Shown here: in pieces, positions 59,484-64,000 of the stretch | Layout: the number at the start of each line of letters is the position of its first letter | How positions within the stretch are numbered: the stretch's first letter is position 1 | Origin: an uncultured Prevotellaceae bacterium | GTDB lineage: Bacteria; Bacteroidota; Bacteroidia; Bacteroidales; Bacteroidaceae | Direction of reading: 5' to 3' | NCBI GenBank assembly: GCA_900321965.1 | Contig: ONYA01000016.1 | Location: 1-64,000, forward strand | DNA length: 64,000 nucleotides | The notes under the pieces: generated by a model | Told to the model about the DNA's origin: nothing | Database searches by the model: none | Seen by the model: only the letters and a program-made list of their open reading frames with translations | Translations under genes and position numbers: made by a program

Positions 59484-60863
59484 ATGACAAATCCCGTCAC
59501 CACTCACCACTCACCATTCACGAGTGAAGACATTGTCACTTCACCATTAACGAGTGAAGACACTATCTGCGCCCCCGCCACAGCCGTCGGGGGCGCAATT
59601 GCCGTTATCCGCGTCTCTGGTCCCGCTGCCTTCTCCAGCGTCAGCACCCTCTGTTCGCTATGCTGCGGTGCTGCCGCAGCCAACACGGTTCACTTCACCC
59701 GCCTCACGGCCCCTTCACAGTGCGATGCGGTTTCCCCGCATCGAGAATTCATCGACGAAGCCCTCGTCACCGTCTTCCGCGCCCCCCACAGCTACACTGG
59801 CGAGGACTCCGTGGAAATCTCCTGTCACGGCTCCACCTACATCGTCCGCCGCATCCTCGACCTCCTTGTCCAGCAAGGTTGCCGCATGGCTCGCCCCGGC
59901 GAGTTCACCATGCGCGCCTACCTCAACGGCAAGCTCGACCTCAGTCAGGCTGAGGCCGTCGCCGACCTCATCGCCTCCACCAACAAGGCCACCCACGACA
60001 TCGCCATGAGTCAGCTGCGCGGACATTTCTCCTCCAAACTCAAGACCCTCCGCGACCAGCTCCTCAAGCTCACCTCCCTCCTTGAACTCGAACTCGACTT
60101 CTCCGATCACGAAGACCTCGAGTTTGCCGACCGTTCCGAACTTCTCGCACTTGCCCAGAAGATTGATGTTCATATTACCCGTCTTGCCGACTCCTTCGAC
60201 ACTGGCAACGCCATCAAAAACGGTATTCCCGTGGCCATCGTCGGTGCTCCTAACGTTGGCAAGTCAACACTCCTCAACGCGCTCCTTGGAGAAGAACGCG
60301 CCATCGTCAGCGACATACAAGGTACCACCCGCGATGCCATCGAAGACACCATCCAACTTGGCGGCATCACCTTCCGCTTCATCGACACCGCCGGCATCCG
60401 CCACACCAACGACCAAATAGAACTCATGGGCATCGACCGATCCATTGCAGCCGCCCAGCGTGCGCGCATCATCCTGATGATGACCGAACCAGGCGTTTCC
60501 TACCCCGACATCCCCGTTCGCGACGACCAGACCGTCATTCGAATCGAAAACAAGACCGATACATTCCAGGCCAAGTTCGGTATCGGCCTTGAAAACCTGC
60601 GCCAGCGCCTGATTGATGCCGCTCCAAAAACTACCGACAACGACGTCATCATAACTAACGCCCGCCATTACGAGGCCCTCACCAATGCCCATACCCACCT
60701 TCAGCGCGTCCTCGACGGTCTCAGCATCAACTTATCTGGCGACCTCCTTTCCGAAGACCTCCGCCTCGTCCTCGCCGACCTCTCCGAAATAACTGGCGAA
60801 GGACAGATAACCCCCCAAGAAACCCTCAACAACATCTTCTCCCATTTTTGCGTCGGAAAGTAG
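59484..60863 (+). CDS. mnmE: tRNA modification GTPase MnmE
   Basis: This 459-residue GTPase has the N-terminal tetrahydrofolate-binding domain (TICAPATAVGGAIAVIRVSG), a helical domain, and a G domain with GAPNVGKSTLLNALLG, DTAGI and NKTD. It ends with the essential C-terminal FCVGK motif. With MnmG it modifies wobble U34. Residues about 5-30, before TICAPA, are an in-frame repeat insertion. The FCVGK-stop sequence is repeated directly downstream (see the attachment-site feature). Confidence 0.96.
   Translation: MTNPVTTHHSPFTSEDIVTSPLTSEDTICAPATAVGGAIAVIRVSGPAAFSSVSTLCSLCCGAAAANTVHFTRLTAPSQCDAVSPHREFIDEALVTVFRAPHSYTGEDSVEISCHGSTYIVRRILDLLVQQGCRMARPGEFTMRAYLNGKLDLSQAEAVADLIASTNKATHDIAMSQLRGHFSSKLKTLRDQLLKLTSLLELELDFSDHEDLEFADRSELLALAQKIDVHITRLADSFDTGNAIKNGIPVAIVGAPNVGKSTLLNALLGEERAIVSDIQGTTRDAIEDTIQLGGITFRFIDTAGIRHTNDQIELMGIDRSIAAAQRARIILMMTEPGVSYPDIPVRDDQTVIRIENKTDTFQAKFGIGLENLRQRLIDAAPKTTDNDVIITNARHYEALTNAHTHLQRVLDGLSINLSGDLLSEDLRLVLADLSEITGEGQITPQETLNNIFSHFCVGK
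59500..59562. repeat. In-frame repeats at the mnmE N-terminus
   Basis: Two CCACTCA units and one CCATTCA unit lie in tandem at 59500-59520. CGAGTGAAGACA then occurs at 59521 and 59551 (30-bp period). They encode HHSPFTSEDIVTSPLTSEDT ahead of the conserved start of the MnmE fold. Confidence 0.75.
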
Positions 60864-60882
60864 ATTTTGCGTGGGTAAATAG
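60846..60882. mobile_element. Tandem duplicated mnmE 3' end: putative integrase attachment site
   Basis: The last 18 bp of mnmE (60846-60863, coding FCVGK-stop) are followed after one base by an 18-bp copy at 60865-60882 that also codes FCVGK-stop. They match at 15 of 18 positions, and all three differences are synonymous third-codon positions. Integration into the 3' end of a gene with regeneration of its terminus is typical of tyrosine-recombinase islands. The SGI1 family uses the same 18-bp position of mnmE/trmE. The matching far end was not found in this window. Confidence 0.7.
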
Positions 60883-61158
60883 GTTGTAACGTGCCGATTA
60901 TTAGATAGTTACAATGCTTTATTAGAGTATTTTAACAAATACAATAACTATCTAATTATCAGCTATTTGCAAAAATCTGCAAATAAAAATTATCACATCC
61001 TGCGGTAGAAAGTACGAAAAATAGGGGTAAAAATCTGCAAATATCCGATACTCATTTTGAGGGTAGTTGTCACCTGATATTTGCAGATTTTTGTAGATGT
61101 TTGCATTGCGCCGATTTCATTATATTATCATGCCTGCACAAAAGCAGGTTTTGATAAT
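60883..61158. promoter_or_regulatory. Recombination/regulatory region with repeated 15-bp sites
   Basis: No gene is visible. A perfect 12-bp inverted repeat (ATTAGATAGTTA at 60900, TAACTATCTAAT at 60945) has a 33-bp spacer. The 15-bp AAAAATCTGCAAATA occurs at 60971-60985 and 61029-61043, and inverted at 61078-61092. The first copy lies in a TATTTGCA/TGCAAATA palindrome. Such clusters fit integrase arm sites or excisionase operators between an att core and an int gene. Confidence 0.6.
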
Positions 61159-61764
61159 ATGATATACAATAATAAGAAACACTTCTACGATCCTTACGAT
61201 AGTTTGGACGCAGAATGGAAAGCAAGACTCTCTCATGAGATGCTTTCCGTAAGAGAAGCGGCTCGCCTTTCTGGATTCAGCCGCCAGTACATCAACAAAC
61301 TTATTGCAAACGGCGTCATTGACGCTAAAAAGAACAACGATGGGAACTATGTGATTGCTTGGAAAAAGTTCGTCAGATGGTTCTCGGCTCTTCCAATTAC
61401 ACTAACCTCCCCTATCGGTTATGCCAGTTACTCTTTGAAAGAGCTGATGCGCTACACGGGCATGAGCAGATGCTGGGTACTTAAGTTTGCAACACGTAAT
61501 TCCATCCCTTCATACTATGTTGGTATGTATCGACGTTTCTGCAAGTATGCTTGTGAAGAAGCCTGGAAGCGTGAGTCTATTGCTTTGAAACGATGGCTGA
61601 CCATTGAAGAAGCATGTACCCTCTTCGATGTTGACGCAGAAGTTATCTTTGCTCTTGCAGCCCTTCATAGGACACGGGTGAAAAGGCAGAACAAAAGCCT
61701 ATTCTATAACAAGGCAGATATACTGTCCGTCGTTAAGAAAGGAGGTACATTATGTCACGAGTGA
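61159..61764 (+). CDS. Excisionase-like helix-turn-helix protein
   Basis: This 201-residue protein has a MerR/excisionase-type HTH near 32-60 (LSVREAARLSGFSRQYINKLIANGVI). A second similar segment lies near 93-120 (YSLKELMRYTGMSRCWVLKF) and a third near 148-165 (LTIEEACTLFDVDAEVIF), so three HTH-like units in a row. It overlaps the recombinase gene by 13 bp. A role in controlling or directing the recombinase is inferred from position. The ATG at 61159 is used; upstream codons overlap the repeats. Confidence 0.7.
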   Translation: MIYNNKKHFYDPYDSLDAEWKARLSHEMLSVREAARLSGFSRQYINKLIANGVIDAKKNNDGNYVIAWKKFVRWFSALPITLTSPIGYASYSLKELMRYTGMSRCWVLKFATRNSIPSYYVGMYRRFCKYACEEAWKRESIALKRWLTIEEACTLFDVDAEVIFALAALHRTRVKRQNKSLFYNKADILSVVKKGGTLCHE

Positions 61765-62849
61765 TTCTAAAGTACAGGAACATTGCACAGGGTAAAATGA
61801 AATCCATCTACCTGGAGTTCAATCCTGCGATTCATGACATCAAGGGCAATAGCGTGAGGTACGAATGCTTGAACTTGGAGATATACACTAACCCAGAAAA
61901 TAGTCAGCAACTCAAACATAACAGAGCTGTGGAAGAGATAGCAGAGACGATTAGATGTGAAAGGTATCTGCAGCTGGTCCGTCACGACTACAGTTTCTTG
62001 GCTAAGGCCAGGCTTGACGAAGATTTCTTGGAATATTTCAGAATGAACGGTGATTGTCATGGTGCAAAATACCAAAGCAGCCGACTTCATTTTGAGAGGT
62101 TTTGTAAGGGACAATGCAAGTTCAAGGATATAAACGCCAGTCTCTGCGAGCGATTCCGGCTTTACCTGCTTCATGCCAAGGGGCTGCAGCACACCAAGAA
62201 AAAGCTATCCAAGAACTCTGCAAGTGCATATTTCAATGCATTCCTTAGCATTGTCCATTTTGCTTATAGAGATAATATTCTTTCTGAAGACTACACAACA
62301 TGCGTGGAAAAGATAAAATGGAGCCATGACATTCCTAAGGAATACTTATCGAGTGCGGAAATCAAGCAGTTGGCAAGTACACCATATGATGATAATCCAG
62401 ATGTGTACAGAGCGGGCATGTTTTCTATCTATACAGGATTAAGACGGAGTGACATCCTTGCTCTCAGATGGGAAAATATACATCATGACCGTGGAAGAAA
62501 AGCGTATATCAGGTTCCGTATCAAGAAAACGGGCACTTTGATTCAATTGCCCTTGTCTCTTCCAGCCATCAGAGTGTTAGGTGAATCGAAATCAGAAGGA
62601 AAGATATTCCCCATGATTACAGAAAGCATTCTTGTAACTCATGTTGATCGATGGATTAGCAAGGCAAAAATCCGCAAGCACATCACCTTCCACTGTTTCC
62701 GCCATACCTTTGCTATGCAGTTGCTGGATAAGGGGGTTGACATTTACACCATTGCTGCACTACTCGGACATCGACAGGTATCAAGCACTCAGAACTATGC
62801 CAAGATGTCTTCGAAGAAAATGATTGAAGCCATAGTGAAAATGGAATAA
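61752..62849 (+). CDS. Tyrosine recombinase / integrase
   Basis: This 365-residue Bacteroidota-type integrase has an N-terminal arm-binding segment, a SAM-like core-binding domain (about 95-185) and the catalytic domain. Visible active-site residues are R in TGLRRSDI, HCFRHTF (HxxR), H in LLGHRQVSSTQNY, and the nucleophile Y in that last block. Located less than 1 kb from the duplicated mnmE 3' end, it is the likely enzyme for that site. It could alternatively serve local DNA inversion. Confidence 0.9.
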   Translation: MSRVILKYRNIAQGKMKSIYLEFNPAIHDIKGNSVRYECLNLEIYTNPENSQQLKHNRAVEEIAETIRCERYLQLVRHDYSFLAKARLDEDFLEYFRMNGDCHGAKYQSSRLHFERFCKGQCKFKDINASLCERFRLYLLHAKGLQHTKKKLSKNSASAYFNAFLSIVHFAYRDNILSEDYTTCVEKIKWSHDIPKEYLSSAEIKQLASTPYDDNPDVYRAGMFSIYTGLRRSDILALRWENIHHDRGRKAYIRFRIKKTGTLIQLPLSLPAIRVLGESKSEGKIFPMITESILVTHVDRWISKAKIRKHITFHCFRHTFAMQLLDKGVDIYTIAALLGHRQVSSTQNYAKMSSKKMIEAIVKME

Positions 62850-62898
62850 TAGCGTTTTTTACAACTAGGATAACAGACAACAGATCCTAACATAATAA

Positions 62899-62936
62899 GA
62901 GGTCTCCATCAACTGATGAGGACCTCTAATTTTTGC
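62899..62936 (+). terminator. Terminator of the integrase operon
   Basis: AGAGGTC and GACCTCT arms enclose an inner TCATCAGTT-like hairpin and are followed by AATTTTT. Confidence 0.65.
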
Positions 62937-62983
62937 ATCGAACGTTTTGTTTTATATAGAGACTATCATATAGCAACAACAAA

Positions 62984-63699
62984 TCACATTCTCTTATATA
63001 GGAAGAACGGAAGATTTTTATTGATGATTGCGAGAATATGCCAACGCCGAGTAACGTAAGCTTTGGATTTCTTCTTCCGAATGGCCGCAATGATTTGACT
63101 GGCAACTTTATCAACTGTCATTACCCAAAACAATCCTTCTCCTTTTGCCATAGCTGTATCAACAAGACCTGGACGAATATCTGTAACAATTATATGCCCT
63201 CCGTTTTTGAAAGCCTTTTCTTACGCAGGGCTTCCATATAGTTGATTTGATAGGCTTTAGTTGCACTATAGGCAGGTGCCATAGGTTCACCCCGCAGGCC
63301 ACCTGCAGAAGTAATGGCAACAAGATAGCCGCAGCCTTGTCGTTCGAAAATGTGGTAGAGCATGTCAATGACAAATGTCCAACCTACGACATTAGTATCA
63401 ATAGTTGGACGCTCCACGGCATAGTCAAGAGTGGCGTTAATCTCACCAGTACCAGCACACGCGATAGCAAGATCAATGTGCCCTAACGTTTCATGGAGAG
63501 TACAAATGGCTTGCCCAATCTCTTCCAAGTTGGTAATGTCAGCTTTAGCAGGAATGGCCTTGGATGGATATTTATGATACAATTCGTCAACCAAATGTGC
63601 TCGTCGTCCAATAATGCCGATTCTATTGTTCTCATTTGCATATTTCTCGAAAAGAGCTTTACCAATACCCGAGGTGGCTCCGATGATAACGATATTCAT
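62984..63699 (-). pseudogene. Short-chain dehydrogenase/reductase gene with a frameshift
   Basis: The first part (from 63699) is a classical SDR: MNIVIIGATSGIGKALFEKY cofactor loop, the ACAG block, and the SAGGLRGEPMAPAYSATK catalytic Ser-Tyr-Lys set. It ends early after LRKKRLSKTEGI. The expected rest (KAFKNGGHIIVTDIRPGLVDTAM and onward to KRM) continues in another frame to 62984. One missing base in the run of four A on the coding strand (63216-63219) explains the shift. Restored length is about 238 residues, normal for SDRs. It could be a true pseudogene or a homopolymer sequencing error. Confidence 0.8.
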
Positions 63700-63715
63700 A
63701 TTGTGCTTTTTGTGT

Positions 63716-63724
63716 ACAAAAGTA
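63716..63724 (-). promoter_or_regulatory. -7 box of the SDR gene
   Basis: The minus strand reads TACTTTTGT, 17 bp before the ATG at 63699. Confidence 0.55.
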
Positions 63725-63783
63725 ATAGTTTATTTGTAAGCCTAAGCACAATTGAAAGTAAAAGAAACGTCATTAGGGCAAAC

Positions 63784-63801
63784 TCTCAAAACATTTTGAG
63801 A
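63784..63801 (-). terminator. Hairpin after the Crp/Fnr-type gene
   Basis: TCTCAAAA-CA-TTTTGAGA is a perfect 8-bp stem directly after the stop codon at 63804-63806. The T-run is weak. Confidence 0.5.
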
Positions 63802-63803
63802 AT

Positions 63804-64000
63804 TTACAGACCAAATGTTATCTCTCTGCGAATGTTGCTGATAGTTGTAGGTGTAACTTTTAGATAAGAGGCTATGTCTTTTAGGTTGATACTTTGTACT
63901 ATTTCAGGACAACGAAGGAGTAAACGCTTATACCGTTCTCTGGTTGTCATTCGATATGTATCAAGGTATTGTGTATAGACCTGAGAAAAGAGGTTGTCGG
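63804..64000 (-). CDS. C-terminal part of a Crp/Fnr-type regulator (partial)
   Basis: The minus strand is open from the window edge to the stop at 63804-63806 and gives about 64 residues. It contains RYKRLLLRCPEIVQSINLKDIASYLKVTPTTISNIRREI, the HTH of Crp/Fnr-family regulators. The sensor domain lies outside the window. It is upstream of the SDR gene in the same direction. Confidence 0.72.
   Translation of the reverse strand, partial: DNLFSQVYTQYLDTYRMTTRERYKRLLLRCPEIVQSINLKDIASYLKVTPTTISNIRREITFGL

What the first reader, a model, noticed from the sequence alone, without database searches (positions are those of the whole stretch)
60846..62849. Duplicated FCVGK-stop end of mnmE next to a tyrosine recombinase: an SGI1-like attachment site in a Bacteroidales genome
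Seen: two adjacent 18-bp copies of the mnmE 3' end, both coding FCVGK-stop, with only synonymous differences, then an excisionase-like gene and an integrase. Known: SGI1-family islands of Proteobacteria integrate at the same 18 bp of mnmE/trmE. Inferred: a Bacteroidota integrase independently targets this conserved 3' end. The synonymous differences suggest that the second copy came from another lineage's mnmE. The tandem layout suggests either serial insertions or loss of one element.
Basis: partly seen in the sequence, partly recalled or inferred. Interest (0 to 1): 0.8.

Follow-up and report, generated by a model that had tools for sequence, protein, structure and literature searches.

The report
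Element-borne doubled mnmE landing site
In rumen and gut Bacteroidales, mobile DNA elements, several with predicted phage-defence genes, sit stacked behind the tRNA-modification gene mnmE and bring their own copy of its last 18 bases, which likely lets the integrase recombine in either of two registers.

Summary
In detail: window 60846-60863 and 60865-60882 are two 18-bp copies of the mnmE 3' end (FCVGK-stop), one base apart, before an excisionase-like gene and a tyrosine recombinase. Four insertions of this element type share sequence from copy 2 onward, so copy 2 belongs to the element; in G142 it alone ends mnmE. Element right ends carry a near-invariant copy (c1), then A, then a second copy. 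Position profiles put the crossover between bases 9 and 12. Best reading: an attP with two adjacent cores (R-c1-A-c2-L) that recombines at either; the window is the left junction of a c1 event. G166 (one copy left, two right) against empty G079 (one copy) fits, apart from 27 extra bases. Tandem copies also occur without integrase, beside integrase-less islands and as apparent scars. Outside the tandem-pattern sample only 9 of 54 mnmE ends have two or more copies, so pairs are common but not the rule. Target as in SGI1, kinship not shown. 'Copy from another lineage' is not supported; serial insertion or loss remains a rival. attR and a circle were not seen.

The parts
59484..60863 (+). mnmE (trmE/thdF), 459 aa, open to its stop; host gene whose 3' end is the target
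   Evidence: Pfam TrmE_N, MMR_HSR1, MnmE_helical; TIGR00450 above its cut-off
60846..60863 (+). copy 1 (x): last 18 bp of mnmE; inferred hybrid, 5' part host, 3' part (GTCGGAAAGTAG) as in the element's c1
   Evidence: sequence; position profiles
60864..60864 (+). single spacer base A; A in 136 of 145 gaps between copies
60865..60882 (+). copy 2 (c2): outermost part of the element's left end
   Evidence: the stretch common to four insertions starts here
60896..60960 (.). inverted repeat, arms 60896-60911 and 60945-60960, 15 of 16 bases complementary
   Evidence: region aligned with L223, L215, L099
60975..60984 (-). predicted arm-type integrase site ATTTGCAGAT
   Evidence: exact match; left ends of this class average 3.08 per 350 bp against 0.05 in base-shuffled controls, n=12 related sequences
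61033..61042 (-). predicted arm-type integrase site ATTTGCAGAT
61079..61088 (+). predicted arm-type integrase site ATTTGCAGAT
61159..61764 (+). HTH_17 / excisionase-like gene, 201 aa, predicted recombination directionality factor
   Evidence: PF12728 E 2.5e-11, TIGR01764 E 2.5e-10
61752..62849 (+). tyrosine recombinase (integrase), 365 aa
   Evidence: PF00589 and PF13102; relatives 94-97% identical lie 0.9 kb beyond a core in G142, G184, L055 and L077
63190..63699 (-). short-chain dehydrogenase-like ORF, possible cargo (a similar ORF lies in an island of G019, L220)
   Evidence: PF00106; L220 ORF start read by eye

Best explanation
The tandem FCVGK-stop repeat is the left junction of a mobile element that the adjacent tyrosine recombinase likely inserted into the 3' end of mnmE, and the second copy is the element's own end. 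Shown: four insertions of the same element type share sequence from copy 2 onward, in three different settings (mnmE with a first copy, mnmE without one, the right end of another element). Inferred: the circular element (attP) carries two 18-bp cores in tandem, R-c1-A-c2-L, with arm-type integrase sites ATTTGCAGAT on both sides, and the host site (attB) has one core. A crossover between bases 9 and 12 of the 18-mer in c1 gives mnmE-x-A-c2-L (two copies left, one right: the window); a crossover in c2 gives one copy left and two right (as in G166, and on the left side in G142). Recombination in the other register on the way out would leave one element core behind as a scar (L045, L076). Either way mnmE keeps an FC[VI]GK-stop end, and each junction still holds one or two cores, so that further elements, including ones without an integrase of their own, can likely be stacked in the same place.
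For: (1) Left ends of window, G142, G184 and L099 align from TTYTGCGTGGGWAAATAG onward. (2) In G142 the same element (integrase 94%) has only this copy, and it is the end of mnmE. (3) In 55 right-end arrays the first copy is near invariant at wobble positions though it codes for nothing there (C3 53/55, C9 49/55, A12 52/55, G15 53/55, G18 53/55). (4) First copies of mnmE-linked arrays with 2 or 3 copies are element-like at bases 12, 15 and 18 against single-copy mnmE ends (A12 54/67 vs 20/49, p 1.4e-5; G15 62/67 vs 26/49, p 1.4e-6; G18 61/67 vs 16/49, p 3e-11), not at 7 (p 1), and weakly at 3 and 9 (p 0.05, 0.04). Second copies at two-copy right ends are fixed at 7 and 9 (44/46 each) and vary at 12, 15, 17, 18. 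The p-values ignore relatedness. (5) G079 has one copy, then DNA that in G166 (98.5% over 872 bp) follows a two-copy right junction; the left junction of G166, 88 kb away, has one copy: 1+2 = 1 host + 2 element. G054 and G116 also show 1+2. (6) The middle copy in 8 of 11 three-copy arrays is exactly TTYTGCGTGGGAAAGTAG, the c2-left/c1-right hybrid that stacking predicts. (7) ATTTGCAGAT, up to one mismatch, averages 3.08 (n=12) and 2.79 (n=28) per 350 bp in left ends of classes 1 and 0 against 0.05 and 0.03 in base-shuffled controls.
Against: No right junction of the window's element was found; the contig runs on 9 kb beyond the window and ends in an ORF with a weak transposase match (DDE_Tnp_1, E 1.8e-4, below Pfam's cut-off). 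No circle was seen; viral contigs gave nothing for right-end and left-end patterns. Outside the tandem scan 45 of 54 mnmE ends have a single copy; these include empty sites and ends next to other integrases, some of which may have one-core attPs. Copy accounting is not always two per element: G080 sums to three and the G184 stack to nine for four elements if a cut-off last copy is counted. In the G166/G079 pair 27 more bases stand before the shared DNA in G166 than in G079, and L132 is offset by 19 bases the other way. Two near relatives of the integrase (85-87%) in G019 have no copy with fewer than 5 mismatches in the 700 bp before the excisionase gene. Right-end arrays were defined by the arm motif, so conservation of that stretch is selected; the 18-mer's wobble bases are not.
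Confidence: 0.65

Rival explanations
1. Serial accretion and loss (first reader, CIME-type): two elements inserted one after the other at mnmE and the first was deleted, leaving two cores side by side; the attP itself has one core.
For: Accretion at one site, with decay to cis-mobilizable remnants, is a known process (PMC5704250, passages). Stacks are real here: G184 has cores at C1 850234, 945160, 955206, 960106 and 975042. Scar-like pairs exist without an element (L045, L076). Most mnmE ends outside the tandem scan have one copy.
Against: Needs repeated precise deletion with the same spacer base A in 124 of 132 first gaps. Pairs recur at right ends as well (52 of 55 have 2 or 3 copies, though most were found with a tandem pattern), and c1 and c2 have distinct conserved signatures.
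Confidence: 0.2
2. Three-core attP: R-c1-A-m-A-c2-L with the middle core recombining, so that every junction gets two copies.
For: Many left and right junctions have two copies; three-copy arrays have the predicted middle copy in 8 of 11 cases; G080 sums to three.
Against: G166, G054 and G116 have one copy left and two right, and G142 one copy left. Three-copy arrays are explained as well by stacking in a two-core system.
Confidence: 0.1
3. Local duplication: the 19-bp repeat is a replication-slippage duplication of the mnmE end, unrelated to the integrase.
For: Period is constant; copies are adjacent.
Against: The same second copy recurs with the same left end in different genomes and settings, and pairs also occur kilobases from mnmE at element right ends.
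Confidence: 0.03

Closest known systems
SGI1 family (Salmonella genomic island 1) and other trmE/mnmE islands of Gammaproteobacteria
   Same: Integrates into the last 18 bp of mnmE (trmE, thdF) and can form tandem arrays; a 7-bp central overlap was proposed (PMC2297512, passages).
   Different: Bacteroidota; integrase with Phage_int_SAM_5 and no model of SGI1 integrase among its Pfam and NCBIfam matches; two cores inferred in the element, where the passages describe one 18-bp attP site. No SGI1 integrase or backbone gene was compared.
CTnDOT / NBU1-type integrases of Bacteroides
   Same: Same phylum. The window's integrase and two class relatives have Phage_int_SAM_5; the relatives also have Arm-DNA-bind_5. 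CTnDOT and NBU1 are said to have 7 bp between cleavage sites (PMC2297512), compatible with the crossover window found here.
   Different: Targets differ (CTnDOT several sites, NBU1 a tRNA-Leu gene; recalled). I recall no tandem cores in them. No CTnDOT or NBU1 sequence was compared.
CIME / ICE / IME accretion at one attachment site
   Same: Stacked elements sharing one site, with integrase-less members (PMC5704250, passages).
   Different: Each element seems to add an extra complete core, so that junctions hold two or three.
Integron gene cassettes
   Same: Small integrase-less units with one to a few genes stacked at one site, perhaps moved in trans.
   Different: attC sites and integron integrase were not looked for; the units are 1.6 kb and up and lie at a host gene end. 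Resemblance only (recalled).

Membership tests
SGI1 family | integration in the last 18 bp of mnmE/trmE | tested here: met
SGI1 family | single 18-bp core in attP | tested here: inconclusive
   junction counts and an empty/filled pair indicate two cores; no circle seen
SGI1 family | SGI1-type integrase | not tested
   no SGI1 integrase was compared; only domain matches are known
SGI1 family | mobilisation by IncC plasmids, SGI1 backbone | not tested
   not searched
Bacteroidota tyrosine recombinase (Phage_int_SAM_5 type) | Phage_int_SAM_5 plus Phage_integrase domains | tested here: met
   E 2.4e-14 and 7.8e-22
CTnDOT-like ICE | conjugation genes in the same element | tested here: inconclusive
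   Pfam on 5 proteins of C51 63-71 kb and on the last ORF showed none, but the element's right end is missing
CIME (cis-mobilizable element) | both att sites kept, integrase and transfer genes lost | tested here: inconclusive
   for other members, not the window: 12 of 19 segments bounded on both sides have no integrase by an HMM from 7 integrases; transfer genes were not searched
Integron cassette | attC site and IntI | not tested
   not searched

The most novel reading that the evidence does not exclude
mnmE in Bacteroidales is a cassette platform built on two-core attachment sites: each element brings a spare landing core, so insertion never uses up the site, integrase-less defence cassettes can be added and removed in trans in either register, and mnmE's end is rewritten each time without loss of function.
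Probability: 0.35. Interest if true: 0.75.

Novelty: new variant of a known kind. Interest (0 to 1): 0.5.

Why it matters
As far as I recall, an integrative element carries one core in its attP. A two-core site, if confirmed, would explain how islands pile up behind one housekeeping gene without spoiling either the gene or the site, gives an easily scanned signature (R end, c1, A, c2) for island boundaries in Bacteroidales drafts, and marks mnmE as a place to look for phage-defence genes in this order (TmtA, AbiE, GmrSD and nucleases were found at or near these sites).

Tried and rejected
Third copy to the right of the window: none in C51 60001-73073 or in the own draft genome. Right end of the window's element: a 27-base motif with up to 8 mismatches found nothing in L005 or the window. 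Three-core attP as the general rule: set back after single-copy left junctions and the 1+2 counts. Viral carriage: one tandem pair in viral contigs (L154), none with the right-end or the window-type left-end pattern; relatives of the integrase in the plasmid and phage collections (22 and 16 records at E 1e-20) are all below 60% identity. Solved structures: 9 distinct sequences, mostly XerD/XerC-like and integrase chains, best E 1.2e-9. RteC as neighbour of the class-0 integrase: guessed from the sequence, no Pfam match. Literature on mnmE/trmE elements in Bacteroidota: nothing among the papers listed (0 papers; 2; 2; 1; 10 of 63; 15 of 109); listings and abstract starts only, apart from the passages; the library lacks most subscription papers.
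Full report
WHAT IS THERE. The window holds mnmE (59484-60863), whose last 18 bases TTTTGCGTCGGAAAGTAG are followed by one A and a second copy, TTTTGCGTGGGTAAATAG (60865-60882). An excisionase-like gene (61159-61764, HTH_17) and a tyrosine recombinase (61752-62849, Phage_int_SAM_5 + Phage_integrase) follow. The own genome is a draft (92 contigs, 78.7% complete); no further copy was found in it with up to one mismatch.

HOW COMMON. Because of the limit nothing can be said about absence elsewhere. In 200 genomes of the same genus the single-copy pattern hit 159, and the window's integrase found relatives at E 1e-40 or better in 62. A strict right-end pattern (arm, c1, A, start of c2) hit 20 of 398 genomes of the genus.

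WHO OWNS WHICH COPY. I collected 194 distinct arrays from the loci fetched up to (arrays with less than 40 bp on either side and identical contexts were dropped). Their left neighbour is mnmE in 116 (49 with one copy, 63 with two, 4 with three), an element right end in 55 (3, 46, 6) and other in 23. Of the 116, 62 come from the tandem scan (4, 55, 3) and 54 do not (45, 8, 1), so pairs are over-represented. Gaps between copies are A in 136 of 145. Left ends of the window's element type in window, G142, G184 and L099 align from copy 2 onward. Upstream, the window and L099 have mnmE with a first copy, G142 has mnmE directly, G184 has another right end. So copy 2 belongs to the element; in G142 it is itself the end of mnmE.

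WHERE THE CROSSOVER LIES. In first copies of mnmE-linked arrays base 7 varies as in single-copy mnmE genes (p 1), bases 3 and 9 differ slightly (p 0.05 and 0.04), and bases 12, 15 and 18 are element-like (A12 54/67 vs 20/49; G15 62/67 vs 26/49; G18 61/67 vs 16/49). In second copies at two-copy right ends bases 7 and 9 are fixed (44/46) and 12, 15, 17, 18 vary. The switch therefore falls between 9 and 12. Sequences are related, so the p-values are too small. The right-end copy c1 is nearly invariant at wobble positions although it codes for nothing there.

TWO CORES. Take attP = R-c1-A-c2-L and attB with one core. A crossover at c1 gives left 2, right 1; at c2 left 1, right 2. G166 (C1 137303; 225343 and 225362), G054 and G116 show 1+2. 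After the right junction of G166 comes DNA 98.5% identical over 872 bp to what follows the single copy of mnmE in G079 (L114 and L182; L114 and G166:C1 have the same length and context); it starts 27 bases further on in G166, while L132 joins 19 bases further on in G079's sequence, so the pair is not perfectly clean. Three-copy arrays arise when a c2-type insertion lands in a c1-type left junction, and the predicted middle copy TTYTGCGTGGGAAAGTAG is found in 8 of 11. Two-copy mnmE ends followed by DNA without an integrase in view (L045, L076; similar DNA, 82-91%, follows a right end in L070 and an unclassified flank in L058) fit excision in the other register. G032 (empty, with a decayed second copy) against L113 and G080 gives a further set. 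G080 sums to three element copies, and the G184 stack to nine for four elements, so two cores cannot be the whole story everywhere.

ARMS. ATTTGCAGAT (up to one mismatch, both strands) occurs 3.08 times per 350 bp in left ends of the window's class (n=12) and 2.79 in class 0 (n=28), against 0.05 and 0.03 in base-shuffled controls, but not in classes 2, 5, 9, 10 and 18, and at 0.14 and 0.40 in classes 3 and 4. Class members are related. The window has three exact copies. Right ends have the motif by the way they were picked.

INTEGRASES. An HMM from 7 integrases found 122 ORFs in all loci. After removing duplicates, ORFs outside 330-450 aa and weak matches, 67 were left; 8 could not be judged. 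Of the 59 on the tree, 21 lie within 2.3 kb downstream of a core and 38 do not. The label is clustered (7 changes against 17 in shuffles) but needs at least 6 changes, so several lineages use mnmE or some have left it. Two rows are doubtful: L275 has an mnmE end 2 kb upstream that the pattern misses, and L243 pairs with an mnmE-linked near-copy.

CARGO. On C51 beyond the window there are a TmtA match (PADLOC E 1.2e-220; Tiamat is the recalled system name), an AbiEii match (E 2.3e-85), an HNH nuclease and a cNMP-binding protein; the contig ends in an ORF with a weak transposase match. Whether all of this belongs to the element is unknown, as no right end was found. A relative of 6.4 kb bounded on both sides (L055) carries AbiEi, AbiEii and a PD-(D/E)XK nuclease. 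In G184, taken as Segatella baroniae B14 from its contig length and context, cores at 850234, 945160, 955206, 960106 and 975042 delimit a stack of about 125 kb (most of the first 95 kb was not read); the second member has AbiEi, AbiEii, an AbiP-like protein and two GmrSD proteins. I looked at 19 segments bounded by cores on both sides: 14, plus 235-250 kb of G019:C32, the elements of G166, G080 and G126, and the first of G184. Twelve have no integrase by the HMM and 7 do; short gaps in L096 and L115 were left out, and other recombinase types would be missed. One of the 7 (L099) has the integrase in two ORFs. Cargo without integrase includes AbiE, Fic, REase-like, PAD_porph and GH42-like proteins. 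Among class-0 left ends with at least 2.5 kb in view, 5 have an integrase 244-473 bp in and 5 do not; 25 are too short to judge.

KNOWN OR NEW. The target equals that of SGI1 (PMC2297512, passages); stacking with decayed members is known as CIME accretion (PMC5704250, passages). What I did not find described is the doubled, element-borne core; the searches covered a partial library and only the listed papers. Verdict: a new variant of a known kind.

Noticed in passing
L005 6998-10285 (G000:C51 66998-70285): TmtA defence-protein match, PADLOC E 1.2e-220, 1095 aa, just beyond the window.
   Followed up: partly
L005 10340-11137: AbiEii-like ORF of 265 aa that begins later than relatives of 305-306 aa in L055 and L215, so its start is missing or out of frame.
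   Followed up: no
63190-63699: SDR-like ORF is short (169 aa); a similar ORF lies in an island of G019 (L220 3-548).
   Followed up: no
L099: Window-type integrase reads as two ORFs; probably a decayed element.
   Followed up: no
L128, L082, L219, L056, L215: A recurring protein start (TLDANMN..RFEQIAKMLFE..YFYNKNHRDIITHPRVSK) in several islands; no Pfam match for the L128 copy, while in L219 it is part of an ORF with a PAD_porph domain.
   Followed up: partly
G019:C27 and G019:C28 (L221, L222): Two integrases 85-87% identical to the window's on short contigs with no mnmE core found near by; their target is unknown.
   Followed up: partly
L154 (IMGVR_UViG_3300031867_000856): The only viral-collection contig with a tandem pair; its right flank matches the one seen in G184 and L056.
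   Followed up: no
G000:C42 73406-73444: A 39-bp stretch 87% identical to part of window 60800-64000 lies in another integrase-like gene (32% identical protein) of the same genome.
   Followed up: no
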